From the NCBI GenBank assembly GCA_003285105.1, contig CP030158.1, forward strand, positions 1,039,447 through 1,103,446: 64,000 nucleotides of DNA, in the 5' to 3' direction. The position numbers and the translations under genes are program-made. The stretch is from Roseithermus sacchariphilus (lineage in GTDB: Bacteria; Bacteroidota; Rhodothermia; Rhodothermales; MEBIC09517). Under the pieces are notes generated by a model. The model made no database searches, was not told the origin of the DNA, and saw only the letters and a list, made by a program, of their open reading frames with translations. Shown here one piece after another: positions 480-61,862 of the stretch. Numbering within the stretch: position 1 is the first letter of the stretch; each line of letters begins with the position of its first letter.

Positions 480-1784
480 TCAGCGAACGATGGCGAGCGG
501 CCGCGTGGCCTGGAACGTCGTGCCCACGATCCGCAGCAGGTAGAGCCCGGCGGGCCAGCGCCGGACCGGCACCGTGAGCCGCAGCGGCTGCCCGGCCGGC
601 AGGTAGCCGTCGTACACCCGCGCCACGTGGCGCCCCCGGAGGTCGTAGAGGTCCACCCGCACGGTCTGCGGGACGGCCACGGTGAGTTGTGTCGAGACGG
701 TCTGCCGGGCCGGCTGCGGGTAGAGCGGAGTCAGCGTAAACGCCGGGCCGGACCGGGCGAGCCCCTCGGCGGCCGTGGCCCGGGACCCTCCGGCCACCGC
801 CAGCTCGCCCGCCGGCACGAGGCCGTCGGCACAGAGGCGCTCGGGGGCGGCGGCCGAGGGCTCGAAGCGCACGGCCCGCGGCTCCCAGGGGCTCGCGGCG
901 TCGGCCCGTTGCACGAGAACCAGCGCCGAGGGCCGGCCCACCCAGTCCAGCACCCCCTCCAGCGGGATGCACACCCCGGCGGCCGGCACCGTCCCCTGTG
1001 TCGGCTCCAGTTGCCAGAAGCCGGGCAGGGCCAGGCGGTCGTAGGCCTCCGGAAGCGGAGTGCCGGCCGGAGCACGGTACACCCGCGTCACCATCAACTC
1101 GGCCGCCGCGGCCAGCGGGTCGGCATCGAGGCGCAGCCCACCGAGCGCCGGCAGCACGACGGCCGGCGGGTCGCCGGCCTCCAGGCGAAGGCGGCGGGCG
1201 CGCCGGTCCATCGCCACCAGCACCGCGTCGTCGTCCATGGCGGGCTGCACCAGCCCGGCCTCGTCCGTCACGGGATCGAGCGTCCAGACCTCGGCCGCCC
1301 GCACGCGCAGCGGGTACAGCCCCGGCACGGCAGACGCGCGGACCACAAAGGCCACCTGCAGGACCGTCCCGGCCGCCGAGGCCACCGGATCGGCCGCGCC
1401 CCGATACAGCGTCAGGCCGAGGTGCAGGGTCCGCTCGGTGCCGGCCGTCGTCTCCTCCATGAACATCGTGCCCTGCGGGCTCGGGCCATCGAACGTGAAG
1501 CCATCGAAGAGTGGCCCCCGCACGACCCCTTCGACCACGAGGGCGGTGGTATCGTAGAGCACCTCCAGCCCCACCCCGAACAGGTGCGCCACGGGCGGAC
1601 CGTCCAGCCGGATCGCGACGACCAGCGTATCGCCGGGCTGCACGATGGGCGCTTCGTTCCAGACCCGCAGCAACGGCGTCGTCTGCGCGAGCGCACCGCC
1701 GGCCGGCAGCGTCAGCATCCCGCAGAAAAGCACCCACCAGGCGGCCCGCACCCGGCGAGCCCGTCGCATCCAGGACCCGATCAT
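480..1784 (-). CDS. Exported cohesin-like protein with T9SS sorting domain
   Basis: The 434-residue protein has a signal peptide at residues 1-34 (basic start, hydrophobic core, end ALAQ). Residues about 38-170 form a cohesin-like beta-sandwich, recognisable from the opening PGDTLVVAIRL, the centre GVGLEVLYDTTAL and the later LGLTLYRG and VLQVAFVVRA strands. Residues about 348-434 are a Por/T9SS type A sorting domain (LYPQPARQT, then VDLYDLRGRHVARV, WPAGLYLLRI), so the protein should cross the outer membrane and be attached to the surface or released. Its ATG overlaps the stop of the preceding 4125-residue gene (ATGA, 1781-1784), which supports translational coupling and the chosen start. That neighbour carries a dockerin-like pair, so a cohesin-dockerin contact between the two is a reasonable but unproved inference. 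No enzyme motif is visible. Confidence 0.85.
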   Translation of the reverse strand: MIGSWMRRARRVRAAWWVLFCGMLTLPAGGALAQTTPLLRVWNEAPIVQPGDTLVVAIRLDGPPVAHLFGVGLEVLYDTTALVVEGVVRGPLFDGFTFDGPSPQGTMFMEETTAGTERTLHLGLTLYRGAADPVASAAGTVLQVAFVVRASAVPGLYPLRVRAAEVWTLDPVTDEAGLVQPAMDDDAVLVAMDRRARRLRLEAGDPPAVVLPALGGLRLDADPLAAAAELMVTRVYRAPAGTPLPEAYDRLALPGFWQLEPTQGTVPAAGVCIPLEGVLDWVGRPSALVLVQRADAASPWEPRAVRFEPSAAAPERLCADGLVPAGELAVAGGSRATAAEGLARSGPAFTLTPLYPQPARQTVSTQLTVAVPQTVRVDLYDLRGRHVARVYDGYLPAGQPLRLTVPVRRWPAGLYLLRIVGTTFQATRPLAIVR

Positions 1785-35700: not shown

Positions 35701-38700
35701 CGAGCTCCAGCGGCGTGTCCGGGCGCGTGGCGATCCGCACGGTGCCGTCCCCGCCGTCGGTCACGTCCACCAGCAGCCGGTCGTTCTCCCGGAGCGTGAG
35801 GTAGGCGATGGCCTCGGTGGGCAGCGGCAGGCGGTCCGGCACGAGCGCGTCGGCCAGGATGGCGGGGTCCGGGTGGAAGCCCGTCTCGTCGATGTAGGCC
35901 AGCCGCGCCTCGTCCCAGAGCAGATCCGCCCGCCCGCGCCGGACGCCGAAACGCGGGTAGAGCCCGAAGGCGAAGTCCTCGGTGAAGTCGACGGCGACGC
36001 CCTCGGCGTAGCTCTCGCCGTCGTAGGCCAGCGCGGCGGCGGCGCGGCCGCTGGTGTGCAGGCCGGTCGAGTCCAGCACGACGGTGCCGCCCAGTTCGAG
36101 GTAGACGCCGGGGTCGAGCGTGCGCTCGGAGCCGGTGGCGAGGGCGCGGAAGTCGAGGGCGCCGGTGGCCGGGTCGATGCCCGCTTCGAGGGCGAAGGGC
36201 TGGTCGAAGAGGGCGCGGCCGCCCAGGATGCGCTGCGTCTCCAGGTCGATCCGCAGGTTGTCGAAGGTGACGCCCAGCGGGTCGGGGCCGAGCCGGAGGG
36301 TCTGACGGCCGTCGACGAGGAAGCCGTCCTCGGAGAGCTCCGCCCGTTCGAGGCGGAAGGTGAGCACCGGGTCGTCGGCGGGCACGGCCCAGTCGAAGGG
36401 CTCATCCAGCCGGAAGTTGACGTTCAGGAACTCACCCGTGACGAGGTCGAGCGTGAAGGTGCCGCGGACGGGGGTGCCGTCGGGGAGGGAGAGCACGGCG
36501 TCGGCGTCCAGGTAGGCGCGCTGGCCGAGGGCCATGGCGTACTCGAAGCGCAGCGTGGAGCGCTCCACGGCCACCTCGAACGGCCCGAGCCTGACGGGGC
36601 ACGAGGGCACGACCGGCGCGACGGTGCCGTTGAGGCCGTGCTCGACCGCCAGGTCGGCCCCGCCCAGGTCGGCCGCTTCGGTACCGGCGCAGGTGAACGG
36701 CTCGCCCACTTCCAGGGCGGCCTGAAGGGCAACGTACCCGTCGTGCTTGAACACGTCCCGCTCTTCCAGGTAGACGCCGTTGAAGCGACCGGCGACGGCG
36801 CGGATGACGAGCGCATAGCCGCTCTCGCCGAAGGCCCAGCGGCACGGCCCCACGTCCTTCGCCTCGATGTCGCCCCGCATCGCGGCGCCCTCCACGCGGC
36901 CCCCGATCAGGCGGAACGAGGCGTTGGCCAGGCAGGCGGGCAGGTCCGGCGAGTCCGGCAGCGTGACCTCGGCCTCGAAGGCCAGGTCCCAGGGGCCGGG
37001 CCCGATGCGGTCCACGTCGAAGAACGGGAAGGTGAAGCCGTTCAGGCGGAGCTGCGTCAGCCGCACGCCGAAGCCGTCGACGTCGAAGGGCGTACCGGGG
37101 AGCTGCGCGCCGGAGAGGTCGAGCGCGGGCAGGGTGAGGCCGTCCGTGCCGAGGCGCAGGCCGGACAGGCGCGGCAGGCGGAGGTCCCCGAAGGCGGGGA
37201 TGCGCAGCGCGGCGTCGAGCGCGAGGGCGACGTCCCAGCCGGCCGCGGGGGTGTAGGTGAGCGTCTCCAGCCGGAGGTTCTCGATGCCGAGGCGGACGAG
37301 CCCGAGGTCGAGTTCGGGGTCGGGCCGCGGGCAGTCCGGGGCCGCCCGGACGAGGGAGAAGCCCGCCTCGTCCGAGAGGGCGGCGGTGGCGTCCAGGCCA
37401 CAGGCCGGGGCGTTGGCGGGCTGCAGGTGGACCCCTCCGCGCACGGTGAGGTCATACCCGAGCGTCTGATCCGCGTCGATCGAGAACGTGCCGGAGAGGC
37501 GATCCACCCCGAAGGTGAGCCGGTCCGAGCCGTCCACGAGCGGCAGCACGGCCTCCGGTTCGCAGTCGAGCCCGACCGTGGCGGCCTCCCCGGACAGCGT
37601 CAGCGTGGGCGCCGGGCAGCGGACCTCGCCCTCGCCGGGCCCGTGGAAGGCGTGGACGGTGCCGGCTCCGGTGATCGGGCCGCCCGGGAAGCTCGCCTGG
37701 AGGCGCGTGACCTCCAGCCGCACGAGGTCGTCGCCCAGGGTTGCCAGCGGACGCCCCTCGGCCTCCAGCGTGCCGAACAGCCCGCTCCGCGTGAGCCGCA
37801 GGTCGCCCCGGGCACGGATGGTTTCGCCGGCCAGGCGGAGGTCGGCGGAGGCGGTGAAGCCCTCGCCGAAGCGCCAGCCGAGGCCGGTCAGCCGCAGCGA
37901 CCCGGCCTCCGGCACCGGCAGCGCCGGCACGTCCCCCGCCTCCAGGGCGCCTCCCAGGACGACGGGCGTGCCCAGCCCGGTCTTCTGGATCTCCAGGTCG
38001 ATCAGCTCGACCGTCAGCCGCGTGGGCGCCTCGAAGGTCAGCTCCAGCGTAGCCTCCCCGTTGAAGACGTAGCTCGTCGCCGTCTCGGTCACCGTCACGT
38101 CGCCGAACTCGAGGAAGCGGCTGAGGTCATCGAGGCGGGCGAAGCCGGGCTCCAGCACGATGGCCCCGAGGGACGCGAGCGACTCGCCGGGGCCGTCGAT
38201 GGGCGTATAGATGAAGGTATAGACCTCGCTCCGGCCGTCGTTCGTGAACGGCAGGCTGTCGTCCGCCGCGCGGGCGGTGACCTGCCAGGCGTAGCGGGCG
38301 CCCTCGCGCAGGGGCAGCAGATCCGGGGTGTAGGTGAAGGAGGTCTGCCCCGTCAGCGACGCCGTGGCGTGCGCCCGGTTGGCCTGTAGCGCCTGGAGCG
38401 GCGTCTGGCCCGGCAGCACCTCCACCAGCAGGACGTCGTAGACGATGGGCACCGTGGCGGGTGCCGTCACGGGCGTCCACGAGAAGATGGGATAGGCCTG
38501 GCCCACGAGCGCCCCGTCGGCCGGGGTGAAGAGCAGCGGGGGCTGCGCGTACTGGACGCTGAAGACCACCGTGGCCGGCAGCGTCGTGATCAGCGGGTTG
38601 TCTTCGGCCAGCGGCTCCAGCGTGAGCGTGTAGAGCCCTTCGGGAAGCGCACCCGTCTGCCGGACTGCATCGCGCAGGTCCGGGGGAAGCTGGTCGTAGA

Positions 38701-39175
38701 GGTCTTCGATCCGGTCGGCGAAGCGGACGGCGGGCTCGTCGCGCAGGGTACGGTAGGTGTAGACGCCGGGCAGGAAGGAGGTCGGCTCCGAGGTGGTCTC
38801 GGCCAGCACCTGGCCGTCTTTCTCCAGCACGAACCGGAAGCGGAAGGTCTGGGGCGCGGCCGAGGGCTGCGTGAAGAGGAACTGGATGGGGTAGCGTCCC
38901 TGCCGGTAGGCCTGCACCTGATCGGCCACGAGGGGCGAGCGGAGTATGGGCGGCACGCCGGAGACGATCACCTGGGCGGTGCCCTGTGCCAGGGCCTCGG
39001 GCACCCCGCACAGGCCGAGCAGGAGCAACAGGCCCGGCACGCCTCTGCGGAGGAACGCCGTCCGGCGAACGAGCAGAAAAGAGACGACGAGCCTCATCAG
39101 AGGGACGAACCCGTCCCCCCGGCCGGACGCAACCGGCGGGCGATGAAACCAGGCAGAACGACGGACGACAGGCAT
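26750..39175 (-). CDS. Giant TANFOR-like exported protein
   Basis: The protein has 4141 residues. The ATG at 39175 overlaps the barrel gene stop (TGATG), favouring coupled translation, but ATG 39097 (MRLVVSFLL) would give a more normal signal peptide; both end at ALAQ. Residues about 65-215 resemble the TANFOR domain: VIVSGVPPILRSPLVADQV, then FRFVLEKDGQVL, a SFLPGVYTY strand and LPEGLYTLTLEPL. PPLLFTPADGALV and YPIFSWTPVT follow. About 2600 residues of repetitive beta-strand sequence come next, with many GL-x-L/DGLTLPA-like turns and LDLGLVRLGIENL motifs. Residues about 2650-2940 are strongly beta and Gly-rich. Residues about 2942-3460 are helical (DLVDRAEAQRDRFRQRIEDL). The last 680 residues are FN3-like with GTTAGGTDV and GTSPGGTDV repeats. 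There is no sorting domain; the C-terminus is LTLPRF. The molecular role is unknown. Confidence 0.85.
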   Translation of the reverse strand: MPVVRRSAWFHRPPVASGRGDGFVPLMRLVVSFLLVRRTAFLRRGVPGLLLLLGLCGVPEALAQGTAQVIVSGVPPILRSPLVADQVQAYRQGRYPIQFLFTQPSAAPQTFRFRFVLEKDGQVLAETTSEPTSFLPGVYTYRTLRDEPAVRFADRIEDLYDQLPPDLRDAVRQTGALPEGLYTLTLEPLAEDNPLITTLPATVVFSVQYAQPPLLFTPADGALVGQAYPIFSWTPVTAPATVPIVYDVLLVEVLPGQTPLQALQANRAHATASLTGQTSFTYTPDLLPLREGARYAWQVTARAADDSLPFTNDGRSEVYTFIYTPIDGPGESLASLGAIVLEPGFARLDDLSRFLEFGDVTVTETATSYVFNGEATLELTFEAPTRLTVELIDLEIQKTGLGTPVVLGGALEAGDVPALPVPEAGSLRLTGLGWRFGEGFTASADLRLAGETIRARGDLRLTRSGLFGTLEAEGRPLATLGDDLVRLEVTRLQASFPGGPITGAGTVHAFHGPGEGEVRCPAPTLTLSGEAATVGLDCEPEAVLPLVDGSDRLTFGVDRLSGTFSIDADQTLGYDLTVRGGVHLQPANAPACGLDATAALSDEAGFSLVRAAPDCPRPDPELDLGLVRLGIENLRLETLTYTPAAGWDVALALDAALRIPAFGDLRLPRLSGLRLGTDGLTLPALDLSGAQLPGTPFDVDGFGVRLTQLRLNGFTFPFFDVDRIGPGPWDLAFEAEVTLPDSPDLPACLANASFRLIGGRVEGAAMRGDIEAKDVGPCRWAFGESGYALVIRAVAGRFNGVYLEERDVFKHDGYVALQAALEVGEPFTCAGTEAADLGGADLAVEHGLNGTVAPVVPSCPVRLGPFEVAVERSTLRFEYAMALGQRAYLDADAVLSLPDGTPVRGTFTLDLVTGEFLNVNFRLDEPFDWAVPADDPVLTFRLERAELSEDGFLVDGRQTLRLGPDPLGVTFDNLRIDLETQRILGGRALFDQPFALEAGIDPATGALDFRALATGSERTLDPGVYLELGGTVVLDSTGLHTSGRAAAALAYDGESYAEGVAVDFTEDFAFGLYPRFGVRRGRADLLWDEARLAYIDETGFHPDPAILADALVPDRLPLPTEAIAYLTLRENDRLLVDVTDGGDGTVRIATRPDTPLELVLPALDPVDPPRLPVALNDVRIRANPSNPEWVSGTLTATVPADDPAFDLTDEGAPIRLTEILFGAGQVGDQTLAALFLKGDLLLFGEAVDRQGEAALYVQSDGVARGVFDLTGLDAPIQLVPGSDRVTLTVEQVQGTADVPLLPTAPGPATFALTADARLAVNGAGGPAAAAEMTLQATPHDLAVTRFQPELLADPPGLDLGAFALRLEALTALPVFTYSPTRGFDFALQLDLDLEVPLAGGERVTFPLHGVEIRDDGLTIPAQDISRSSVPGLHRPPFTLGGVELEPLALRTGGPVTVDWYRGFDVDLALDPRLDLALRLPALDDTGLVPPDGFTLTDVGLADGILTGSVTPFSPLSPVPVPLRRPAADAPELLVSRLTGGLVRLDTPGGPAQGIDLRVEGTLEALPGFTVDDPAACPQPLTFSLGLVDGGRGFEGTVSNFAPCGALTFGPVAVAVASSTLTFGFSNDAQTALLDGSVTVTLPGTSPTTPTTATGSLRIDLLQGTLAGGAVQIEDPFRLDWPTGGGSDPLFAFTVTRAELSAAGLRLQAQGTLDVDPAAVDVQFNDLLLGLDDFRIAGGSATIDAGVGAEIALQPLRLDLVAATAPLPAGDAARLTFGSALTLDSRGLVFSGTGTAFIRFGGTVYPSLRLVFENDFALNPGVFGVRQGRAAFYLDEGATPATEPLAVLDQNGFRIGGGVLAILPDTLGLPTRDVAYVVLKDAQGQPLIDVQENPSTGGYTLGTQGAPLPLVLAGLGDGNGPPPTALVAFDLTTDATYTPTGGSVTLETPADLRPALGLPLTLTRLTLDGTGGFAELEAEVRVDLPPATGAANAPPLTASARLTAAGLADGRVTVGTYTTHHDATLPPAFRYTFGGTLPGANQPDAFTLDVMGMELEVGATKRLALSGTLSSTLLADDAGSPVPIFYAAAFEQDAWTFALDAAALPPTLPLGLADLTPNPVDPFEVTVTDDAFRVAVDGVLSFENLVGEPLEVTVDGLAVGVTGLQSTPQPLFALDAVTLPDQHFALFDDAVTGTIRQPTLAVDGRVLRVASSDGDLTFMDETIAYQGLAIGSDGSFTFGQIETNDIELLEQYVVLRSLALSNADGALALEAGVRVTLPEPVASTADATIRLRRGAGGQVDVTTTGPSFDVNQTVPLGDFAEFRLTRVGVSLDVMDPVRSGVYANGVVRIAGQDRIRFGDDANFPNNPGLGFSPSTFPRLQYNATGNAAFSFDHSFFTIRIAANAAVSDQEAFRVVLGGTAGLRVAGVSGELDYEGFTVTADGVEDIGNLTGSGSLQLMSFVTLELGRFGHREDPSGFTISLPDGTGDGPQDLEARAGDGTGAVATPTRQVSVTEVLCFGPCDQILDGTAAPGGGRDALRISLGGAGNGDSGGFSGGIERVLFYTETDGTRFLSIDNVSMAVGNHFALTASMAYENGPDGFLLRAAGAGMFDFGGTQVAAAVAGTFANRDNELSFGLFVAASARPGIPLIPGIIELNGAGGGFFYKPVQEDLDQVVDVLATPGFNYTPVRPGGPPRAADLSFAMMLYAQIGIGGSAGQFVVEGQTFLQLSNQNLYLDVRGTVLGLDGENAIAGTRLEAGMYAAVIFDPFFLDAGVIVSINVPATIDGTSHLNFFMGEHNGALLWGVIGHLEVGVYGGIVTADGEFLACADGFLLEAGLGFEVGIPVLKVESEVRGSIWLIDDPNFSMPFGAYVTFEAEACAGICITAEARAAFVTRRPSGFELFAAVKGCVDLLLDEACVSAWASFSNDGVDGGLGSGSHGDLVDRAEAQRDRFRQRIEDLRAQLQAAKDALSQPQPMPSFALSAADLRRAGARLYLMSLEDRQAWGARAVQIEQGFYGAGFLTVYNQIWNARPTYEAILASDALSPEAARQRALDAVAAAEQTADVVLPRLSTAVQRAVRFESQAEQAFDDMLAALAQSPVRSVVRPDTTGPITRSPSFDVDEALAAQQAGATDQLRGELAALDEAFRTSIADLAANVDEIDQLLAAQVRLTQMDTAPVADGRFIVPPIRIAGIEIEPSVNGMAATYSRAIEAMEAYYARLANREWNRRAWLLGLHGQLRTNTASIQTSINSITNRFVQVFDAAPNTSQGRQYPRAAGNAARRFQMVLALRDDLALSALPPYTRPPQRSDFSSPQELLDYYDGLRQSYDDYHDSNTAPSARTSIRQAAVQNVRDQVQALWYDIHDLGLPEAAYQVARRVSGPDGVSDQRRQALQPLRSTYGDATDLMEQVYASKASLVATLYGMVDNYVTWRSYFTEPTDSLVAAYRQQRSRLEDALAPPTIAGIRATPQRQQYFNTTRLDWTAQHPLAVAEASYQLEPYGDADTETIAEGITEYLSVGSRTSVNVIDYKRAAPRPSDPNAAAVEQAYASVRYSVGIRVRGPAGNTAIRRGEFEMAVAPGGTGTPGGSAIEVQDASPPAAPILALDAFYESTSRTEFVPVDGFNNARIFLPVTRERYWTNTDQTIRLFVIARDDESDITGFEYAVGTTAGGTDVIAWTSLQGTRGREVGDPSLVNLDAQTRFIGLQPGQPYYVSVRVTNGAGLTSPVTADQKGVVFDPTPPSDPSPAYRFTSFPPYLFPTTPPVTPPSTTPPPLTSLSGQGLTSSAEIDAYNAAIETDRVPQVTASWTASTDEESGLWRYEYCLSERPERPEDCFTSPRLRYETTSTSVTLVGGPNRYNNLLRDFDDELYVHVRAVNHAQSASGVLTLGPLVPKDPTAPTRPGVQGWTALGAVRVYVPTLSFDPETNLAGYQYAIGTSPGGTDVRPWPTGGTVDVAWQNNHHLAAIFNNLGNPAPFIRIPQSDLVDGRLYVCVRAVNTQGQTSAVSCTGPFVRDGSPPPAPSVRLSLDGGQLTIEGSNLYDPESGVVAVHYQLDDPNDFTYDPHPWKTFRSVGTPLTSPTSHARTVDVSGVSNLLELRVGIRVTNAVGRQTVTWQRLTFRDVRRDITYEGGAALPPLTLPRF

Positions 39176-40884
39176 CAGAAACGGTATTCGTAGCGCAACG
39201 TGGCCTGCCCTTCGCTGAACGCATCGCCCAGGTCGGGTCGGTTGCGCAGGCCGCGCAGGTTGAGACGGAGTGTGGTGGCCCCGGGGAAGCGATAGGACAC
39301 ATTCAGCGCCGTCATGAGCTGCGACGAGACGGAGGGCACGGGGCCGTCGGCCAGATGGATGGTGGCATCGCTGCGGGACCAGCCGCCGGTGAGCGAGAGG
39401 TTGAGCGCGCCGAGCGTGTAGCCCCCTCCCAGGTTCGCCCCCAGCACGGTCAGCTCGCTCATGGCGGCGTCGCTGCGGACGAGGTTGCCCGCGGCGGTGA
39501 GCGACAGGCCCGAGGGGAGTTGCACGGCGTAGCCGAGCGTTGCCGAGGCGTTGTCGATGGTGTTGGCCGGGCGGAGCCCCCGTTCCACGGCCAGGCTGCG
39601 GTCGGCGGAAGTCTGGTAGGTGCCCGCCAGCGACACGGTGTGCGTCAGGGCGCCGCCGGTGAGCGTCAGTACCGGGGCAAGCATCACCGTCTGCGCCACC
39701 TGCTCCAGGTCGAGGCGCTCGGCGTCGGCCGTGGCGGCGGGCGTGTTGCGGTTGCTCAGGCGCGTGTAGCTGCTGCTCACGGCCAGCGAACTCGAGAGCC
39801 GGGCCTGGGCCGTCAGCCCGATCTGCGTGCGGGTGAGCGTGGCCAGGAGCTGATCCGCCAGGTTGTTGCGGGCGCGGCTGAAGGAGCCGCCGAGGACGAG
39901 CCGCCCATCCAGCAGACGGGCCCGCGGCTGCACGCGGACGGTCTCCTGGTCGGGCCGCAGACGCTCGACGCCGAGCGACTGAAAGCCGGGCTGCACGCGG
40001 CTGTAGCCGAGCAGCAGATCCACCACGCGGAGGGCCAGGCGCAGGTCGCCGCCGCCGGCGTAGTCCAGGCTGGTGCCCTCGCGCGGGGTGAAGAAGGGGT
40101 CGAAGAAGGCCGGCACGGCCTCGCCGGCGTCGAGGGCGTCGTTGCGGGTGTCCGGGGTGAAGGCCGAGGCCGTCACCTCCCCCTGCAGGCGCACGCGCCC
40201 GCCCAGGAGCCGCAGCCCGCCGTCGGCGGTCAGGGTCAGGTTCTCGACCGGGGCGAGGTCGCCGGCACGGTCGATGGAAGAGGCCAGATCCCGCCCGTAG
40301 AGGCCGATGAGGTGCAGGTGGGTACGCCGGGCCTCACCCACCCCGAGGCGACCGCCGTAGAGCATCCGCCGGTACGAAGGCTCCCGGAATCCCTCCCCCT
40401 CGCTGAAGTCCACCGCCCGGCGGGCCCGCCCCGCCACCACGCCCAGCAACACCGGCCCCGGCGACCATTCCACGTACCCCCCGCGCACCGTGGCCCCGCT
40501 GAGGCTGTATTCGGAGAACGTCGGGCTGACGTCCCCGGCAGCCACCCGCCCCGACGCCCAGCGCGTGTCGAAGGCGAGGCGGTTGACGTTCTGGCGCAGG
40601 CGCGACTGGTCGGTCGAGTAGGTCAGGTTGAGGCCGGAGCGGAGGCCGTAGAGGTTGAACGACAGGTTGGCGAACGCCTCGGCGTTGGTCGGCGCGCGGC
40701 GGTTGGCGATGCCGGCGGCCGTGTAGGCCTGCGTCGCCAGCCCGAACGAGCCGTTCAGCCGGAGCGGTCCGAGATCGACCTGCGCGCGAACGGGGCACGC
40801 CAGCCCCAGCGCCACCCCGAGCAGCACCGACCACCACACCGGCCGGCCGGAGATCAACAGCAACTGACGGAACGAATGCGGCAT
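39175..40884 (-). CDS. Outer-membrane beta-barrel protein (partner of the TANFOR-like giant)
   Basis: The 569-residue protein starts at MPHSFRQLLLISG with a signal peptide ending CPVRAQ; the upstream in-frame extension is rich in Cys/Gly/Pro and not credible. The mature protein consists almost wholly of alternating hydrophobic strands with short turns (LRLNGSFGLATQAY, LNLTYSTDQSRLRQ, VLLGVVAGRARRAV, LRLALRVVDLLLGYSRV, TLRYEYRF) and ends in aromatic Phe, the usual outer-membrane insertion signal. The early block SPTFSEYSLSGATVRGGYVEW followed by VAGRARRAVDF resembles the family found beside TANFOR genes, where a NPQFS-type box precedes a GxGVEL-type strand (comparison from memory). It is the first gene of the minus-strand unit, and its stop overlaps the ATG of the giant gene. 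It is probably the channel, anchor or docking platform for that protein. Confidence 0.85.
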   Translation of the reverse strand: MPHSFRQLLLISGRPVWWSVLLGVALGLACPVRAQVDLGPLRLNGSFGLATQAYTAAGIANRRAPTNAEAFANLSFNLYGLRSGLNLTYSTDQSRLRQNVNRLAFDTRWASGRVAAGDVSPTFSEYSLSGATVRGGYVEWSPGPVLLGVVAGRARRAVDFSEGEGFREPSYRRMLYGGRLGVGEARRTHLHLIGLYGRDLASSIDRAGDLAPVENLTLTADGGLRLLGGRVRLQGEVTASAFTPDTRNDALDAGEAVPAFFDPFFTPREGTSLDYAGGGDLRLALRVVDLLLGYSRVQPGFQSLGVERLRPDQETVRVQPRARLLDGRLVLGGSFSRARNNLADQLLATLTRTQIGLTAQARLSSSLAVSSSYTRLSNRNTPAATADAERLDLEQVAQTVMLAPVLTLTGGALTHTVSLAGTYQTSADRSLAVERGLRPANTIDNASATLGYAVQLPSGLSLTAAGNLVRSDAAMSELTVLGANLGGGYTLGALNLSLTGGWSRSDATIHLADGPVPSVSSQLMTALNVSYRFPGATTLRLNLRGLRNRPDLGDAFSEGQATLRYEYRF

Positions 40885-41098
40885 GCGGCCCGGGCAGGCG
40901 AGGCGAGGATGGACGGCGTGTTCATTACCCCAAACGAAAAACCCGCGACAGACCGGACATCCCACGCCCATTTTTCCAGGCGGCCCCCTTTCCGCGCAGC
41001 TCCCACGCGGCGCGTGTCCGGTCACCCGGTGGTTTTGCGTTTCTACAGACGCTGGCTGTTCCGTTCATGACCCCGCCGCGGCCTGACCCGCGGTTTCG
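40885..41098. promoter_or_regulatory. Divergent control region between the barrel operon and the beta-helix gene
   Basis: This 214-bp region must hold promoters for both directions. AT-richer patches stand out against the GC background: ACCCCAAACGAAAAACCC near 40930 (minus-strand reading contains GGGGTAATGAAC) and GGTTTTGCGTTTCTACAG near 41035 on the plus strand. Neither gives a convincing TTTG-N19-TAnnTTTG or TTGACA/TATAAT pair, so exact sites are not assigned. Confidence 0.4.
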
Positions 41099-44000
41099 AT
41101 GCCCATGGTTTTTCGCTCGATGCCTCGCCGGTTCGGCCGGCTCGCCGGCGCGCTCGGTTGCATGATGGCGTGCATGATGGCGCTGGCCGTTGCGCCCGCG
41201 GCTGCACAGATCACCTGGACCGGCGACGGCGACGGCACCTCCTGGAGCGACCCCGCCAACTGGAGCCCGGCGACCGTCCCCGGCGCGGGCGACGTCGCCA
41301 CGATCGGCACCACCGCCACGGTCACCCTCGCCAGCGCCACCACCGTCGCCCACCTCACCCTCTCCAGCGCCGGCGCCACGCTGATCCTGGAGGCGGCGCT
41401 CACCCTCGACCGGCTGGACCTGGCCAGCGGCACCCTCACGGGCACCGCCGACCTCACCGTCTCCGACAGCCTCGCCTGGAGCGGCGGCACGATGAGCGGA
41501 AGCGGCACCACGACCCTCGGCCGCACGGGGGCGCTGCTGGGATCCCAGACCAAGACGCTGGACGCGCGCACGCTCGTCGTCCAGAACGGCGCTACGCTGG
41601 CCTATCCGCCAGGCACCCACTACCAGTTCTTCGGCGGCAACGGGGCCTCGCTCATCCTCGAAACCGGCGCGCGCCTCGACATCGAATCGTCCACCGCCTT
41701 CCGAAACTTCGCGGTCTTCAGCGGCAGCACAGAACCGCCGCAGATCTTCAACGCCGGCACGATCCGCAAGCCAACCGGGACGACGAGCACGTTCGAGATC
41801 GACTGGGACGTCGCCATGAACGGCGGGGCCGTCGAGGTGACCGCGGGCACGATGCGGCTGGACGGTACGCTCTACGATGCCGGAGGGGCGTACCGCACCG
41901 GCACCGGCGCGCGGCTGATCCTGAACCCGCCCCCGGAAACCTTCGTCACCTTCGCGCCGACGTCCTCCTTCTCCGGCGCCGGCGCGATGGAATTCATGGG
42001 CGGCACGGCGACGCTGCTGGGCACGTACAACGTGACCGGGCCGACGGAGATCTCCGGCTTCGGCGGCCAGGGCGCCCGCGTCACCTTCGATGCGTCGATG
42101 AACCTGATCAGCAAGTCGATCGACCTGATCGGGGTGCGCGACCGGGGGGCGCTGACGGTGGCGCTGGCCGATCCGATCTCGGTGGACTCGCTGAACCTGG
42201 CCTCTTTCTCGTCGCTCGGCTTCACGGCTCCCGTGACCGTCGGCAACGGCCTGTTCCTGGGCAACGCCAATGCGACGCTGGAACTGGCCGATGACCTCAC
42301 GGTGAACGGCCCACTGGTCTGGCAGGGGGGGACGCTGCGCGGGACGGCCGCGGGCGTCGAGGTGCGCCTCGCAGGCGGCGGCCGGCTGACCGGCGGGGCG
42401 GGCAGCGCCGGCAACAACAAGGCGCTCGATGCGATCCGGCTCGTCGTGCCCGCCGGGGCCACCCTCACCTACGAGGGCACGCGGAACTTCACGGGCACCA
42501 ACGGGGCGGTGCTGGAGATCCAGGACGCGGCGGTGCTGGACGTGCAGCAGTGGGCGGACTTCGAGGTGGACGCCGCGAGCACGGCGCCGCCGGTGATCGA
42601 GAACGCGGGCGTGCTGCGCAAGACGGGCGGCGACAGCGACACACGCATCGCCTGGGACCTCGTCAACACCGGTACCGTCGAGGTCTCCAACGACGAGCTT
42701 CGTTTCCGCAGCGCGTTCACCGACGGCGGCGGCACCTACCGCGCCCTCCCCGGCGGGACGCTCGTCTTCGAAACCAGCACCGACTCCCCCATCACCTTCA
42801 CCGCCGCCTCCACGCTCGAAGGCGCGGGCACCATGGTGTTCGACCGGACGGCGGTCGTCACGCTGAACGGAACCTATAACGTCACCGGGACCACGCGCGT
42901 GCTCGGGGCTGGCACCTTCGCACGGGCCGACGTAACGTTTGCCCCGGAGATGGTGCTCACGAGCCTCGGCACGCTCGACATCGGCGCCGGCTTCACCTCG
43001 GGCGGCATCGCCCGCATCCAGACTGCCACGATGCCGCCCGTCCCCGCCCTCACGCTCGGCGGCTCGGGCGAACTCTACCTCACCCCGGACCTGACCGTCA
43101 CCGGCACGGCCCACCTCGGCAACCGCGGTACGCTCATCGAAGGTCCGGGCGACGTGGTGGTGCAGGGGGTGCTGACCTGGCAGGGCGGAGTACTGCGCGG
43201 GCCGGGCACGACGTGGGCGCAGGGCGGCGTGATCTTCACCGGCGGGGCCGGATCGGCCTCGTGGAACAAGACCCTGGACGCACGGCGGCTGGTGCTGGTG
43301 GAGGGAACGACGTCCGAGTACCAGGGCACGCGGAACTTCACGGGCACCAACGGAGCGGTCCTGGAGATCCAGGACGCGGCGGTGCTCGACGTGCAGCAGT
43401 GGGCGGACTTCGAGGTGGACGCCGCGAGCACGGCGCCGCCGGTGATCGAGAACGCGGGGGTGCTGCGCAAGACGGGCGGCGACAGCGACACGCGCATCGC
43501 CTGGGACCTCGTCAACACCGGCACCGTCGAGGTCACAAACGACATCCTGCTCCTGCAGGGTACCCTCACCGACAGCGACGGCACCTACCGCGCCGGCACA
43601 GGGGCCACGCTCGACATCCGTCCCGTCAACGACGGCGTCGGCCCAACCTTCACCGCCGCCTCGTCCATCGAGGCCGACGCGGGTGCGACGGTGAACTTCG
43701 GCACGACCTTTTCACCCTCCGGCATACTGCCGATCCGCATCGAGGGAACCTACGACGTCCAGGGACGCACGACCGTCCGGGAAGGCAACGTCGCCGAGGT
43801 GACCATCGCCGAGACGGCCACGGTGGTCAACCTCGGGGCGGAAGGGGTCATCGTCGGGAGCAACCGCGGACGCCTCCTCGTCGAGACGACCGATCCGCTG
43901 ACGATCGGGGCGCTGGAAGTCGGCTTCCAGGGAACGCTGGAGGTGAACGGTCCGCTGACGGTGACGGGGGCGCTGAGCCTGGCACACACCTCGGCAACGA

Positions 44001-47000
44001 TGGTGAGCACCTCCGAGGTAGCGGTGCAGGGGGTGCTGACCTGGCAGGGCGGGGTACTGCGCGGACCGGGCACGACCTGGGCGCAGAGCGGCGTGATCTT
44101 CACCGGCGGGGCCGGATCGGCCTCGTGGAACAAGACGCTGGACGCACGGCGGCTGGTGCTGGTGGAGGGGACGACATCCGAATACCGGGGCACGCGGAGC
44201 TTCACGGGCACCAACGGAGCGGTGCTGGAGATCCAGGACGCGGCGGTGCTCGACGTGCAGCAGTGGGCGGACTTCGAGGTGGACGCCGCGAGCACGGCGC
44301 CGCCGGTGATCGAGAACGCGGGGGTGCTGCGCAAGACGGGCGGCGACAGCGACACGCGCATCGCCTGGGACCTCGTCAACACCGGCACCGTCGAGGTCAC
44401 GAACGACCTGCTCGATCTGCGCGGGGCGGTGACCAACACGGCCGGCGGCTTCTTCCAGGGCACGGCCACGCTCGGCCTCCAGAACGCGACGAGCGTCACC
44501 AACGCGGGCACGCTGGCGCCCGGCACCGACGGCACCGTGGGCACCCTCACCGTCGCGGGCGACCTCGACCTGGGCACGGGCACGCTGGCGCTGGACGTGG
44601 GCGGCACGACGCCGGGGGTGACGCTGGACAGCCTCGCGGTGACGGGCGCGGCCACGCTCGGCGGCACGCTCGCCCTGAATCCGCTCGACGGCTACGACCC
44701 GGCACCGGGCATCCGCCTGCCCTTCCTCGCTGCTGCCAGCGTCACGGGCACCTTCGACGCCATCGCCCCGGGCTTCGCCAGCGGCCAGACCGCCACCGTC
44801 GAGATCGACGCCACGAGCGCGACGGCGGTCATCACGGCGGGCACGGCCCCGGCCCGGCTGGAGGGCACCGTCACCGACGCCACGACGAGCGACCCGATCC
44901 CCGGCGCGCAGGTCGCCATCGACGCGCTCGGCCTCGCCACCACCACCGGCCCCGATGGCACGTACGCCTTCCCGAGCGTGACGCCCGGCACGTACACCGT
45001 CGAGGCCCGCTTCACCGGCTACCAGACGGGCAGCGCCGAGGTGACGCTGGCCGACGGCGAGACGGTCACGCAGGACTTCGCGCTGACCCCTGTTTCGACC
45101 GACCCCGCCACGCTGTCCTGGACCGGCGCAGCGGGCGACGGCCTCTGGAGCACCGGCGGCAACTGGGACCTCGGCCGCGCCCCGGCGGCGCAGGACACCG
45201 CCGTCGTCAACCTCGACCCGGGCTCTTCCTTCACCCTGCAGGTGGCCGCCGATGCCGCCGTCGCTCGCCTGGACGTCTCCAGCGCCCGGGCCACCGTCCA
45301 GGTGGATGACACCCTGCACGTCTCCGATGCCTTCACCCTCTCCGCCGGCGGCACCGGCGGCGTCGGCACCCTGATCGTGGACGGCACGGCGGTCCTCTCC
45401 GGCGGGCACATGGGCGGGGACGGGACGGCGGTCTTCAACGGACCGACGAGGTGGACGGGCCGCGCCGGCATGAGCGGGAACGGGACGACCGTGCTCAACG
45501 GCACCACAACGCTCCGCGCCACCGAAGGCTTCGCCTTTCAGACCGTCGAACTCCGCGGGCGGACGCTGGAGATCAACGGCACCCTGGCTATCGTCGAGGG
45601 ACTCCTCGAACCGCTCGTCGGGGCCACCATCCGCGTCACCGAGACCGGCGTCATCGACTTCCAGGCCGCGGAAACCGGTATCCGCCCGACCGACGGCACC
45701 ACGCCCCGTCCGAGGCTCCTCAACGAGGGCCTGATCACCAAGACCGCCGGAGAGGGCTTCTTCAACACGGCCCAGATCGGCAACACCGAGAGCTTCACCT
45801 TCGGCGACCGGCGGATGACGCTCACCAACACCGGCACCATTCGCTCGGCCAACGGGGGAATCACGCTCTACCTGGACGAGGCCAGCGTGCTGGGCGGCCT
45901 CGTGGAGGCAAACAGCACCGTCACCCTCCAGCGCGGCGAAGAGAACACGTCCGAGCCGATCGCCGTCGCCGCCACGATCCGGGGCGACGGGACGATGCTC
46001 GTGAACGACCCCTTCACCTTCACCGGCACGATCGACCTGGCCGGAAGCATGACCGTGCGCCAGGACCAGACCTTCGCCGCCGACCTCACGCTGACGCAGC
46101 TCGGCGAACTGGTCGTGAGCACCAACCCGTTCGAAGACGGCATCTTCGAGTTCGACGTCGCGGGCACTCCCACCATCGCCCGGCTCGACGTGCGCGGGGT
46201 GATGCGCCTCGGCAGCGCCCTCGTCGTGCAGGACACGCTCGTCTTCGGCGAGCGCGGACCTGCCACGCTCACCGGCACCGGCGACCTCACCGTCGCCGCC
46301 GGGGGCGAGATGCGGTGGGGCATCGGGACGATGGGCGACGGCGGCACGCTGACCATCCGCGGCTCGCTCGTCTCCACCGTCGCGCAGTACCTCGCGGGCG
46401 ATTTCCGGGTGCAGCGGTCCGAGGCCATGCTCGTCGGCCGTGCCCTCGTGCTCGACGGCACCGCCACCTGGGACGATGCCCCGCTCACGCTCGATGCCGG
46501 GGCCACGGTCCAGATCGCCGAGGGCGGCGTGTTCGACCTCACGCGCGACGCCGAGATCCGGCCCGGCGAGGCTGCCACATCCGGCGAGGCAGTCACCAGC
46601 GACGGCACACTCCGCAAGACGGGCGTCGGGCGGCGCACGAGCACCGGCGAGGCCCCCGTCGCCTACGACGACGTCAGCCACGGCACGGTCATCGGCGTAC
46701 CGTTCGTCAACGGCGGCACGCTGGCGCTGGAGGCCGGCCGCACGGCCTTCACCGGCGCGCTGACCCATACCGGCCTCGTGCAGGGCACCGACACGCTGGA
46801 CGTCTCCGCCGAGGGCCTCACGGTCACCAGCACCGGCACCTTCGCCCCCGGCACGCCGACCGGCCGCCTGACGGTCGTCGGCCCGCTCGACCTCCGCACG
46901 AGCACGCTGGCCGTCGACCTGGGCGGGACCGATCCGGCGACCGGCTACGACCAGCTCCGCGTGGAGGGCGCGGTGACGCTCGGCGGCACGCTGGCCGTCA

Positions 47001-49291
47001 CCCTCCTCGACCCCTTCCGCCCGTCCGACGGCGACGCCTTCGCCGTCCTCGACGCCACCGCCGTCGAGGGAACCTTCGAGACCGTCTCGCTACCCTCCGT
47101 GGCGGGGACGACCTTCGAGGTATCCACCGGGGACACCGCCGTCGTGGTGCAGGCGACGGTGACGGCCGAGAACCGCGCGCCCGTCGCCGTGGACGACGAA
47201 GCGACGACGCCGGAGGACCAGGCCGTCGCTGTCAACGTCCTCCGCAACGACACCGACGCCGACGGCGACGCGCTGGCGATCGCCGCCTTCACGCAGCCCG
47301 AGCGCGGCACGGTGGCCCGGGACGGCGACAGCACGCTCGTCTACACCCCCGCCGCAGACGTGCACGGAACCGACGCGTTCACCTACGTGCTGAGCGACGG
47401 TGCGCTCACGGACACCGCCACCGTCACCGTCACCATAACCCCGGTCAACGACCCCCCGGTGGCCGTCGACGACACGACCGTGACGAGCCGCAACACCCCG
47501 CGCACGATCGACGTGCTCGCCAACGACCGCGATCCCGACGGCGACGCGCTGACGATCGCCTCGGCAGCGAGCACCAGCACCGAGGGCGGCCTCGTCGAGG
47601 TGCTCGACGCGGCGGCGATCCGCTACACGCCCCCGGCCGATTTCGAGGGGCTGGACACGTTTACGTACGTCGTCAGCGACGGCAACGGGGGGACGGACGA
47701 GGGGACCGTTCGCGTGACCGTCGAACTGCTGCGGTACACGGTGACGGACCTGGGCACGCTGGGCGGGGCGGCCAGCCGCGCGATGGCGCTCAACGACGCG
47801 GGGGTGGTCGTGGGCCTCTCGCTCGACGCCGAGGGCCGGATCCAGGCGTTCCGCTGGGTGGAGGGCACGATGACGCGCCTCGGGGAGGCGGCCGAGACGC
47901 AGGCCTTCGCCATCAATGCCGACGGGCTCGTGGCCGGGCAGGCCGTCGTACGCGACGACACGGCGCATGCCGTGCTCTTCCGCCCGGACGGCACCCTGCT
48001 GGACCTGGGCACGCTCGGCGGGCGCTTCAGCACGGCCTATGCCCTCAACGACGCGGGGGTGGTGGTCGGCACCGCCACCGGGAGCACCGGGGCGGCCCGC
48101 GGCTTCGTATGGGCCGACGGGGCGATGCAGCCGGCCGGCCCGGCCGCCGGCGCCCACAGTGAGGTGCAGGCCGTGAACCGTGACGGCCTCGTGGCCGGCC
48201 ACGTCCAACACGCCGACGGCACCACGCAGGCCTTCCGCGGATCGGACCTCCTGCCGCTGAACGACGCCACCGCCAGCCGGGCCTACGACCTCGGCGACGA
48301 GGGTACGGTCGTCGGCAGCCTCGTGCAGAGCGGCGCCACGCGCGCGGCGATCTGGACCGGCGACGCGGTGCAGGCCCTGCCGGACCTGGGAGGACCGTTC
48401 GCCGAGGCGTACGCCCGCAGCGAGGCGGGGTGGATCGTGGGCGTGGCCGGTCTGGCGGAGGCCGGCGCGGCCCGGAGGCCGACACCGGCGGCCACGCCGC
48501 AGGCGGCACCCTCCGCGGCGATGCGGCTCTTGCATGCCGGACCGCCGCGCCCCCGCCTCCTCGCCGGCAACCACCTGCGGGCCGTGCTCTGGCGGGAGGG
48601 CACCGTGCGCGACCTCAACACGCTCATCGGCGACGGCACGGGGTGGATCCTGCAGGCCGCCTGGGGAATCAACGCCGACGGCGCGATCGTGGGGCACGGA
48701 CTCCTCGACGGGCAGCTCCGTGCCTTCCTGCTCACCCCGGCGGACAACCTGCCGCCGGTGGCCGTCGACGACGCGTTCTCGCTGGAGGCTCCCGCCGCCG
48801 GGCTCCTGCTGCCCGTGCTCGCCAACGACACCGACGAGCGCCAGGGACTCCGCATCGTTCAGGTCGCGCCCCCCGCGCATGGACAGGCCGAGATCCGGGA
48901 GGAAGCCGCCGTGTGGTACACGCCGGCCGACGGCTTCGCCGGCACCGATCGCTTCACCTACACCATCGCCGACGCGCAGGGCGCCACCTCCACCGCCGTC
49001 GTGACCGTCCACGTGGCCCCGCACGGCCCGGCGGCCTCCGGCCTGGAAGCCGCCTATCCGAACCCCTTCGCCGGAAAAGTCACCCTCACCTATGCCGTAT
49101 CCGCCGAGGCGCACGTCGTGCTGGAACTCTACAACGTCCTGGGCCAGCGCGTCCGGCGGCTCGTGGATCAACCCCAGACCGCAGGACGCTATACGGTACA
49201 CCTCGACGGGCAGGACCTGGCCGCCGGGCTGTACTACTGCCGCCTCCAGGTCGGCACGCAGACGACGTCCCGGCCGCTGGTACGACGCTGA
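41099..49291 (+). CDS. Giant T9SS beta-helix/HAF-repeat surface protein
   Basis: The protein has 2730 residues. The signal peptide is residues 1-37 (MPMVFRSM…APAAAQ; ATG codons at 41105 and 41120 are alternatives). Approximate order: TWTGDGDGTSWSDPANW opening typical of passenger-like beta-helices, then repeated NAGTI/NTGTVEV/LDGT strands to residue 1250; carboxypeptidase-regulatory-like domain 1253-1335 (GTVTDATTSDPIPGAQV); a second helix block 1340-2010 that starts with the same TGAAGDGLWSTGGNWD motif; two cadherin-like domains 2023-2216 (APVAVDDEATTPEDQ, NDTDADGDAL); HAF repeats 2211-2551 (DLGTLGG…ALNDAGVVVG); a third cadherin-like domain 2551-2641; and a T9SS sorting domain 2643-2730 (EAAYPNPFAGKVTL, LELYNVLGQRVR). 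It is likely a surface adhesin. Three internal segments are nearly identical in DNA. It has no catalytic motif and is divergent from the barrel operon. Confidence 0.9.
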   Translation: MPMVFRSMPRRFGRLAGALGCMMACMMALAVAPAAAQITWTGDGDGTSWSDPANWSPATVPGAGDVATIGTTATVTLASATTVAHLTLSSAGATLILEAALTLDRLDLASGTLTGTADLTVSDSLAWSGGTMSGSGTTTLGRTGALLGSQTKTLDARTLVVQNGATLAYPPGTHYQFFGGNGASLILETGARLDIESSTAFRNFAVFSGSTEPPQIFNAGTIRKPTGTTSTFEIDWDVAMNGGAVEVTAGTMRLDGTLYDAGGAYRTGTGARLILNPPPETFVTFAPTSSFSGAGAMEFMGGTATLLGTYNVTGPTEISGFGGQGARVTFDASMNLISKSIDLIGVRDRGALTVALADPISVDSLNLASFSSLGFTAPVTVGNGLFLGNANATLELADDLTVNGPLVWQGGTLRGTAAGVEVRLAGGGRLTGGAGSAGNNKALDAIRLVVPAGATLTYEGTRNFTGTNGAVLEIQDAAVLDVQQWADFEVDAASTAPPVIENAGVLRKTGGDSDTRIAWDLVNTGTVEVSNDELRFRSAFTDGGGTYRALPGGTLVFETSTDSPITFTAASTLEGAGTMVFDRTAVVTLNGTYNVTGTTRVLGAGTFARADVTFAPEMVLTSLGTLDIGAGFTSGGIARIQTATMPPVPALTLGGSGELYLTPDLTVTGTAHLGNRGTLIEGPGDVVVQGVLTWQGGVLRGPGTTWAQGGVIFTGGAGSASWNKTLDARRLVLVEGTTSEYQGTRNFTGTNGAVLEIQDAAVLDVQQWADFEVDAASTAPPVIENAGVLRKTGGDSDTRIAWDLVNTGTVEVTNDILLLQGTLTDSDGTYRAGTGATLDIRPVNDGVGPTFTAASSIEADAGATVNFGTTFSPSGILPIRIEGTYDVQGRTTVREGNVAEVTIAETATVVNLGAEGVIVGSNRGRLLVETTDPLTIGALEVGFQGTLEVNGPLTVTGALSLAHTSATMVSTSEVAVQGVLTWQGGVLRGPGTTWAQSGVIFTGGAGSASWNKTLDARRLVLVEGTTSEYRGTRSFTGTNGAVLEIQDAAVLDVQQWADFEVDAASTAPPVIENAGVLRKTGGDSDTRIAWDLVNTGTVEVTNDLLDLRGAVTNTAGGFFQGTATLGLQNATSVTNAGTLAPGTDGTVGTLTVAGDLDLGTGTLALDVGGTTPGVTLDSLAVTGAATLGGTLALNPLDGYDPAPGIRLPFLAAASVTGTFDAIAPGFASGQTATVEIDATSATAVITAGTAPARLEGTVTDATTSDPIPGAQVAIDALGLATTTGPDGTYAFPSVTPGTYTVEARFTGYQTGSAEVTLADGETVTQDFALTPVSTDPATLSWTGAAGDGLWSTGGNWDLGRAPAAQDTAVVNLDPGSSFTLQVAADAAVARLDVSSARATVQVDDTLHVSDAFTLSAGGTGGVGTLIVDGTAVLSGGHMGGDGTAVFNGPTRWTGRAGMSGNGTTVLNGTTTLRATEGFAFQTVELRGRTLEINGTLAIVEGLLEPLVGATIRVTETGVIDFQAAETGIRPTDGTTPRPRLLNEGLITKTAGEGFFNTAQIGNTESFTFGDRRMTLTNTGTIRSANGGITLYLDEASVLGGLVEANSTVTLQRGEENTSEPIAVAATIRGDGTMLVNDPFTFTGTIDLAGSMTVRQDQTFAADLTLTQLGELVVSTNPFEDGIFEFDVAGTPTIARLDVRGVMRLGSALVVQDTLVFGERGPATLTGTGDLTVAAGGEMRWGIGTMGDGGTLTIRGSLVSTVAQYLAGDFRVQRSEAMLVGRALVLDGTATWDDAPLTLDAGATVQIAEGGVFDLTRDAEIRPGEAATSGEAVTSDGTLRKTGVGRRTSTGEAPVAYDDVSHGTVIGVPFVNGGTLALEAGRTAFTGALTHTGLVQGTDTLDVSAEGLTVTSTGTFAPGTPTGRLTVVGPLDLRTSTLAVDLGGTDPATGYDQLRVEGAVTLGGTLAVTLLDPFRPSDGDAFAVLDATAVEGTFETVSLPSVAGTTFEVSTGDTAVVVQATVTAENRAPVAVDDEATTPEDQAVAVNVLRNDTDADGDALAIAAFTQPERGTVARDGDSTLVYTPAADVHGTDAFTYVLSDGALTDTATVTVTITPVNDPPVAVDDTTVTSRNTPRTIDVLANDRDPDGDALTIASAASTSTEGGLVEVLDAAAIRYTPPADFEGLDTFTYVVSDGNGGTDEGTVRVTVELLRYTVTDLGTLGGAASRAMALNDAGVVVGLSLDAEGRIQAFRWVEGTMTRLGEAAETQAFAINADGLVAGQAVVRDDTAHAVLFRPDGTLLDLGTLGGRFSTAYALNDAGVVVGTATGSTGAARGFVWADGAMQPAGPAAGAHSEVQAVNRDGLVAGHVQHADGTTQAFRGSDLLPLNDATASRAYDLGDEGTVVGSLVQSGATRAAIWTGDAVQALPDLGGPFAEAYARSEAGWIVGVAGLAEAGAARRPTPAATPQAAPSAAMRLLHAGPPRPRLLAGNHLRAVLWREGTVRDLNTLIGDGTGWILQAAWGINADGAIVGHGLLDGQLRAFLLTPADNLPPVAVDDAFSLEAPAAGLLLPVLANDTDERQGLRIVQVAPPAHGQAEIREEAAVWYTPADGFAGTDRFTYTIADAQGATSTAVVTVHVAPHGPAASGLEAAYPNPFAGKVTLTYAVSAEAHVVLELYNVLGQRVRRLVDQPQTAGRYTVHLDGQDLAAGLYYCRLQVGTQTTSRPLVRR
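42474..42694 (+). repeat. Internal DNA repeat copy 1 (shorter) in the beta-helix gene
   Basis: This 221-bp segment, from AGGGCACGCGGAACTTCAC to TCCAACGAC, is almost identical to the 3' part of the copies ending at 43543 and 44407. It encodes FTGTNGAVLEIQDAAVLDV and the NAGVLRKTGGDSDTRIAWD block. Upstream of it the homology continues at protein level only. Confidence 0.9.
43160..43543 (+). repeat. Internal DNA repeat copy 2 in the beta-helix gene
   Basis: This 384-bp copy starts at GTGCAGGGGGTGCTGACC and ends at ACAAACGAC. It matches copy 3 along its whole length with only scattered, largely silent changes, while the sequence between copies is unrelated. That pattern suggests recent duplication or gene conversion of a beta-helix module. 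Confidence 0.92.
44024..44407 (+). repeat. Internal DNA repeat copy 3 in the beta-helix gene
   Basis: This 384-bp copy has the same length and phase as copy 2 (start-to-start distance 864 bp, a multiple of 3). The few amino-acid changes include WAQGGV to WAQSGV, YQGTRNF to YRGTRSF and an Ile to Leu near the end. Recombination between copies 2 and 3 would remove 288 residues in frame. Confidence 0.92.
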
Positions 49292-61438: not shown

Positions 61439-61644
61439 CTCCTGCTCTCCCACTCACCCGGTGGAGGCCGTCCGCCGAGTGACGCTCGGCCGGGACCCGG
61501 GGCGGGCGGGGCGTCCCCTCCGGCCCCGGCATGGACCCGTTTCTCGGGGACAAGGAACACGCGGGCAGGGGACGACGCACGCGGAAAGGTCTGTTTTAGA
61601 TGTAGGGGCCGTTTACCGACCTCCCGTGCTCGAAACCCCGACAG

Positions 61645-61862
61645 GCCGGGGGCGCCGGGCCAGAGGCCGGGGGCGCCGGGCCAGAGGCCGGGGGCGCCGG
61701 GCCAGAGGCCGGGGGCGCCGGGCCAGAGGCCGGGGGCGCCGGGCCAGAGGCCGGGGGCGCCGGGCCAGAGGCCGGGGGCGCCGGGCCAGAGGCCGGGGGC
61801 GCCGGGCCAGAGGCCGGGGGCGCCGGGCCAGAGGCCGGGGGCGCCGGGCCAGAGGCCGGGGG
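61645..61862. repeat. 21-bp minisatellite, 10.4 perfect copies
   Basis: The unit GCCGGGGGCGCCGGGCCAGAG is repeated ten times without a mismatch, plus 8 bases of an eleventh copy. Identity across all copies indicates recent expansion or active homogenisation. Each unit contains the self-complementary core GGGCGCC/GGCGCC, so single strands can fold into hairpins, and its G-runs (GGGGG, GGG) may form quadruplexes. The unit length is a multiple of three. It lies only 34 bp from the stop of the phosphatase gene. Confidence 0.97.

What the first reader, a model, noticed from the sequence alone, without database searches (positions are those of the whole stretch)
42474..44407. Homogenised repeat modules inside a giant adhesin-like gene
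Copies 2 and 3 (384 bp each, 864 bp apart) are nearly identical and copy 1 shares the last 221 bp, yet the sequence between copies is unrelated. This suggests gene conversion or recent duplication of beta-helix rungs. Recombination between copies 2 and 3 would delete 288 residues in frame, giving length variants of a surface protein.
Basis: seen in the sequence. Interest (0 to 1): 0.5.

Follow-up and report, generated by a model that had tools for sequence, protein, structure and literature searches.

The report
Gene-converted repeats in bacterial surface protein
A very large, probably surface-exposed bacterial protein is built from long repeated beta-helix units, and parts of three of these old, diverged units are nearly identical in DNA, best read as ordinary within-gene recombination that could also change the protein's length.

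Summary
The three copies are real and at the stated places: copy 1 at 42474-42694, copy 2 at 43159-43543, copy 3 at 44023-44407, 96-97% identical, inside a 2730-aa gene with a type IX secretion tail. The gene carries four units of about 285 residues (the last partial), and the stretches between copies are the diverged, homologous tails of the same units. Where residues match in those flanks, codons agree about as often as codon usage predicts; inside the copies they agree in 86-97% of cases against 57-62% expected. A recent tandem duplication would have copied whole units, so the best reading is within-gene conversion of a 221-385 bp part of old units. Three relatives carry the same units without such a tract. 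The units are predicted with high confidence to form a beta-solenoid. Recombination between copies 2 and 3 would remove exactly one unit in frame; length variants could not be tested. A new example of a known process, of low to moderate interest.

The parts
41099..49291 (+). gene for a 2730-aa secreted protein (3.5 solenoid units, CarboxypepD_reg, Ig/cadherin-like, HAF repeats, type IX tail)
41468..42310 (+). unit 1 (residues 124-404), no homogenised tract
42311..43168 (+). unit 2 (residues 405-690), holds copy 1
42474..42694 (+). copy 1, 221 bp, 96.4% to copy 2
42695..43156 (+). tail of unit 2, diverged but homologous to the other tails
43169..44032 (+). unit 3 (residues 691-978), holds nearly all of copy 2
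43159..43543 (+). copy 2, 385 bp, 96.9% to copy 3
43544..44020 (+). tail of unit 3, diverged but homologous to the other tails
44023..44407 (+). copy 3, 385 bp, front of the partial unit 4
44858..45088 (+). CarboxypepD_reg domain (residues 1254-1330)
47147..47719 (+). Ig/cadherin-like (Big_9, Cadherin_4/5) region, residues 2017-2207 (best stretches)
47780..47887 (+). HAF repeat, best of three stretches (residues 2228-2263)
49055..49282 (+). type IX secretion C-terminal sorting domain (residues 2653-2728)

Best explanation
The gene encodes a long, secreted, probably cell-surface beta-solenoid protein whose N-terminal part is 3.5 old tandem units of about 285 residues. Shown: the units diverged long ago, synonymous sites outside the copies are saturated, and a 221-385 bp part at the same place in units 2, 3 and 4 is nearly identical. 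Inferred: homologous recombination between units of the same gene (gene conversion, in at least two episodes or continuously) has kept or made these parts alike while the tails escaped, the shared 3' limit lying where units differ in length and homology fails. Inferred consequence: the same identity permits deletion or duplication of exactly one unit (288 codons, in frame), so the protein's length can change. It would be a by-product of ordinary repeat recombination rather than a dedicated system.
For: Copies 96-97% identical with abrupt ends at homologous positions of the units. Codons at matching residues: in the common tract 66 of 72 identical (44.4 expected) for units 2/3, 66 of 71 (43.4) for 2/4, 70 of 72 (43.9) for 3/4, and in the head of 3/4 43 of 50 (28.6); in the flanks of 2/3 16 of 28 (15.8) and 29 of 53 (27.3). 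Tails homologous by shuffle test. 0 of 5000 shuffles reach the segment score for the three pairs. Of the 12 codons that differ between copies 2 and 3, 9 differ synonymously. dN/dS of copies 2/3 over 390 bp 0.019/0.098; in the 222-bp common frame 1/2 0.012/0.140, 1/3 0.024/0.117, 2/3 0.012/0.037, so the exchanges differ in age. The tract tree groups own units 2-4 (97/94). Syntenic orthologue G011 has the same layout with ordinary divergence. Unit number varies between species. A second gene of this genome shows what plain tandem duplication looks like: a 555-bp unit alike along its whole length.
Against: The three pairs share the same 3' limit to the nucleotide, which independent conversions would not be expected to do unless heterology stops them; tail replacement would also give this. 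Conversion cannot easily start between units only 40-55% alike in residues, so the likeness must have been kept up since an earlier duplication rather than made once from fully diverged units. The segment trees do not exclude units 2-4 (head, p-AU 0.266) or 2+3 (tail, p-AU 0.143) as one group outside the tract either. No strain data and no direct evidence of recombination.
Confidence: 0.75

Rival explanations
1. Duplication of units followed by replacement of their tails by diverged homologous tails from elsewhere (cassette exchange); the alike heads are the untouched remainder.
For: All three pairs share one 3' limit, as a common junction would; the tails are as far from each other as from tails of other species.
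Against: Needs at least two separate imports with the same junction; no donor seen: the only other own-genome match outside this gene is a distant one in another gene.
Confidence: 0.12
2. Recent tandem duplication of whole units.
For: It is the usual cause of alike repeats (passages of PMC5120217), and it fits another gene of this genome.
Against: Only 385 of each 864 bp is alike; at matching residues of the tails codon identity is at chance.
Confidence: 0.05
3. The tract is held constant by selection, on the protein or on a DNA/RNA element inside it.
For: 3 of 100 dinucleotide shuffles fold as well as the tract (z -1.78).
Against: Protein selection does not keep synonymous sites; no Rfam match in the window; relatives do not keep the tract alike.
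Confidence: 0.04
4. Assembly artefact.
For: Repeats can be mis-assembled.
Against: Copies differ at 8-12 places and have different flanks; the genome is one contig, 99.98% complete.
Confidence: 0.02

Closest known systems
Periscope Proteins (PMC8201768; passages seen)
   Same: Large bacterial surface protein with in-frame repeats of high DNA identity that could change length by intragenic recombination
   Different: There arrays of highly similar whole folded domains; here only part of each unit is alike, units are solenoid segments, the export signal is a type IX tail, and no length variants have been seen
Homogenisation (concerted evolution) of protein repeats (PMC5120217; passages seen)
   Same: Repeats of one protein more alike to each other than to counterparts in orthologues
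   Different: That paper attributes most cases to recent duplication; here the saturated tails argue against it
Beta-solenoid autotransporter passengers (antigen 43, UpaB, pertactin) and the secreted adhesin EtpA
   Same: Parallel beta-helix fold
   Different: Type IX sorting tail and no barrel family found; 11-16% identity; Foldseek TM-scores only about 0.2 over the whole model
555-bp tandem array in another large gene of the same genome (locus L018)
   Same: Long near-identical in-frame repeats in a protein with a similar N-terminus
   Different: Whole units are alike, as expected for recent tandem duplication

Membership tests
Type IX secretion system cargo, type A tail | C-terminal Por_Secre_tail domain above the curated cut-off | tested here: met
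   TIGR04183 38.5 bits over cut-off 23; PF18962 33.2 over 27; 104 matches to the family in the genome
Type IX secretion system cargo, type A tail | Export and surface anchoring by the system | not testable with these tools
   needs experiment
Right-handed beta-solenoid passenger-like proteins | Parallel beta-helix fold | tested here: met
   model of residues 405-1115, pLDDT 89.9, almost all strand; UpaB Z 17.9, 315 residues, 4.1 A; pertactin Z 16.9, 366 residues, 3.7 A
Type V autotransporters | C-terminal membrane barrel | tested here: not met
   no barrel family in the Pfam and NCBIfam scans; the C-terminus is a type IX tail
Intragenic gene conversion | Tract alike at synonymous sites between repeats, with flanks diverged but homologous | tested here: met
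Intragenic gene conversion | Repeats of one gene group together in the tract but not outside it | tested here: inconclusive
   tract groups own units 2-4 (97/94); outside it the grouping is not found but not rejected: head units 2-4 p-AU 0.266, tail units 2+3 p-AU 0.143
Periscope Proteins | Length variation between strains by repeat number | not testable with these tools
   one genome of the species held; between species unit number differs
Periscope Proteins | Array of whole folded domains of high sequence identity | tested here: not met
   only about 128 of 288 residues per unit are alike
Diversity-generating retroelement target | Mostly amino-acid-changing differences at template adenines, with a reverse transcriptase | tested here: inconclusive
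   10 of 15 differences of copies 2/3 and 4 of 9 of copies 1/2 involve an A, but 9 of the 12 codon changes between copies 2 and 3 are synonymous third-position changes; no reverse transcriptase was searched for

The most novel reading that the evidence does not exclude
The homogenised heads are kept alike by ongoing conversion because identity there is useful: they act as built-in crossover sites that let the cell gain or lose one whole solenoid unit in frame, while the tails are free to diversify. Weak hints of older within-gene grouping at the same part of the unit in relatives (G039 units 93/91, G011 units 1-2 72/71 in the tract tree) would fit a recurring process.
Probability: 0.15. Interest if true: 0.45.

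Novelty: new member of a known kind. Interest (0 to 1): 0.22.

Why it matters
It is a clean case in which exchange within one bacterial gene can be told apart from recent duplication, because only part of each repeat is homogenised. If length variants exist, it would extend the variable-length surface protein idea to type IX secreted beta-solenoids. The process itself is well known.

Tried and rejected
Rejected or disfavoured: recent whole-unit duplication (tails saturated); protein-level selection alone (excess synonymous identity); an RNA element (weak fold signal, z -1.78, 3 of 100 shuffles as good; no Rfam match and no tRNA in the window); assembly collapse (copies differ and have different flanks). 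A diversity-generating retroelement looks unlikely from the mostly synonymous changes but was not excluded: many differences involve an A and no reverse transcriptase was searched for.

Led nowhere: genome-contig scans. One search found no usable stretch in the alignment; one search gave 8 candidate stretches and 0 relatives, with the relative's protein, gave 7 loci with weak or short N-terminal matches. Scanning those 7 loci, five class or phylum loci (L048-L052) and L018 with the unit profile gave matches under E 0.001 in L048 and L050 only, each over part of the unit, and exact 60-base repeats in L018 only. In the phylum search (10 of 394 genomes, window's own included) strong full-unit matches were in G000 and G011 only. 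Trees of the short segments are mostly unresolved; the tail tree left out 4 of 12 units (own 4, G011 3, G039 2, G074 3) that lack a full tail. Seven literature searches listed no paper on this gene; that is a statement about those searches, and most papers were seen as listings only. Viral and metagenome collections were not scanned.

Full report
What is there. The region lies in one 2730-aa open frame, window 41099-49291 on the plus strand, with third-position GC of 0.93. The three copies are present at the stated places: 42474-42694 (221 bp), 43159-43543 and 44023-44407 (385 bp), with identities of 96.4% (copy 1 to 2) and 96.9% (copy 2 to 3) and offsets of 849 and 864 bp. A DNA search of the whole genome with the region found no other place.

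The stretches between copies are not unrelated. The gene has units of 281-288 residues (unit 1 41468-42310, unit 2 42311-43168, unit 3 43169-44032, partial unit 4 from 44033), each matching a profile built from six units of three genomes, three of them the window's own. Two further unit-like stretches in the second half match weakly (E 0.0014 and 0.0079). Copies 2 and 3 are the front part of units 3 and 4; copy 1 is the middle of unit 2; unit 1 has no such tract. The tails of units 1, 2 and 3 are 30-35% identical in residues and score 12.6 to 17.7 standard deviations above shuffles against each other. The region after copy 3 shows no clear homology to those tails (Z 0.3 to 1.9), and scores of 4.8, 2.8 and 0.0 to three tails of relatives.

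Why exchange and not selection or duplication. Among residues that match, codons agree about as often as this gene's codon usage predicts outside the copies: units 2/3 head 16 of 28 (15.8 expected), tail 29 of 53 (27.3). Inside the copies they agree far more often: common tract, units 2/3 66 of 72 (44.4), units 2/4 66 of 71 (43.4), units 3/4 70 of 72 (43.9); head of units 3/4 43 of 50 (28.6). Best-segment scores were reached by 0 of 5000 site shuffles for each of these three pairs; for the pairs of unit 1 with units 2, 3 and 4 by 2834, 1831 and 76 of 5000. A tandem duplication would have carried the tails along. In another large gene of the same genome (L018) a 555-bp unit is 93-100% alike per 45-base block at lag 555 along its length, which is what plain duplication looks like. 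Copies 2 and 3 are closer to each other (dS 0.037 in the common tract) than to copy 1 (0.140 and 0.117), and the 5' limits differ, so there was more than one exchange, or a continuing one. The three pairs share the 3' limit, which falls where relatives carry insertions of different length. I read this as heterology stopping the exchange; tail replacement is the main rival. Because units elsewhere are only 40-55% alike in residues, conversion more likely maintained an old likeness than created it from fully diverged units; that is inference.

Relatives. Of 114 genomes of the order 8, the window's own included, match the unit profile at E 0.001; of 394 drawn from the phylum 10 do, own included, most of them weakly and over part of the unit. 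Three relatives carry more than one unit: G011 2.5, G039 1.5, and G074 at least 2.5, its gene being cut by the contig's start. G011 is a syntenic orthologue: homologues of the 4141-aa and 616-aa neighbours precede it in the same order and orientation, and the C-terminal 700 residues align at 40%. In none of the 7 within-gene unit pairs of these three genes is codon identity clearly above expectation in head, tract or tail; the largest excess is 12 of 16 against 8.8. So the homogenised state is particular to the window's genome among those seen. In the tract tree own units 2-4 group (97/94). G039's two units group at 93/91 and G011's first two at 72/71 there, while the head tree pairs G011 unit 1 with G039 unit 1 (82/88) and the tract rejects that pair (p-AU 0.037). 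This hints at older exchanges in relatives but is weak: the alignments are short and the other groupings are not rejected outside the tract (head, own units 2-4, p-AU 0.266; tail, own units 2+3, p-AU 0.143).

Structure and likely role. Residues 405-1115 are predicted as one long beta-solenoid (mean pLDDT 89.9, pTM 0.83, six rows in the alignment). Foldseek's best solved match is antigen 43 (E 3.4e-4, the only one of 155 at or under 0.001; TM-scores about 0.2, so only local likeness). The second look gives UpaB (Z 17.9, 315 residues, 4.1 A), pertactin (2iou_G Z 17.6, 388 residues, 4.3 A; 1dab Z 16.9, 366, 3.7 A) and EtpA (Z 17.3, 442, 5.9 A), tied within 1. Enzymes and tailspikes of the same fold follow at Z 12-14.5, so the fold does not give the function. 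With a type IX tail in a genome with 104 matches to that tail family, a secreted or surface solenoid is the best guess; adhesion is inferred. Neither Pfam nor NCBIfam matched the unit region (residues 124-1110).

Consequence. Recombination between copies 2 and 3 removes 864 bp and leaves the frame open; it would give 2.5 units, the number seen in G011. The 176-bp perfect run makes such an event plausible. No second genome of the species was available, so length variants remain a prediction.

Compared with what is known. Passages of PMC8201768 describe variable-length surface proteins with highly similar tandem domains; passages of PMC5120217 describe homogenised repeats, mostly put down to recent duplication. 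This gene is a variation on both themes: partial-unit homogenisation of old units. The finding is real and the gene conversion reading well supported, but the process is ordinary.

Noticed in passing
window 61643-61862: Perfect tandem array of a 21-bp G+C-rich unit, 10.5 copies at 100% identity, between predicted genes; the exact unit occurs 10 times in the genome, all here.
   Followed up: partly
L018 4737-6686 (own genome, contig 1 about 4375736-4377685): Another large gene with a similar N-terminus carries a 555-bp in-frame unit repeated about 3.5 times, 93-100% alike per 45-base block at lag 555.
   Followed up: partly
window 26750-39175 and 39175-41025, minus strand: A 4141-aa and a 616-aa protein without Pfam (E 0.001) or NCBIfam (E 0.01) match stand beside the gene both here and in relative G011 in the same order, suggesting a conserved three-gene cluster.
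   Followed up: partly
window 1781-14158, minus strand: A second giant gene, 4125 aa, with CARDB, thrombospondin type 3, dockerin-like and type IX tail matches.
   Followed up: no
window 57089-57125: Short perfect 18-bp tandem repeat, 2.1 copies.
   Followed up: no
L016 11704-14259 (relative G011): The orthologue carries an expanded tandem array of Ig/cadherin-like domains, period 276-282 bp, 68-70% matches, where the window's gene has three profile stretches.
   Followed up: no
window 45467-46703 (residues about 1452-1864): Two weak further unit-like stretches after the CarboxypepD_reg domain, suggesting a second, older solenoid block in the same protein (coordinates converted from a frame that starts four codons earlier).
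   Followed up: no
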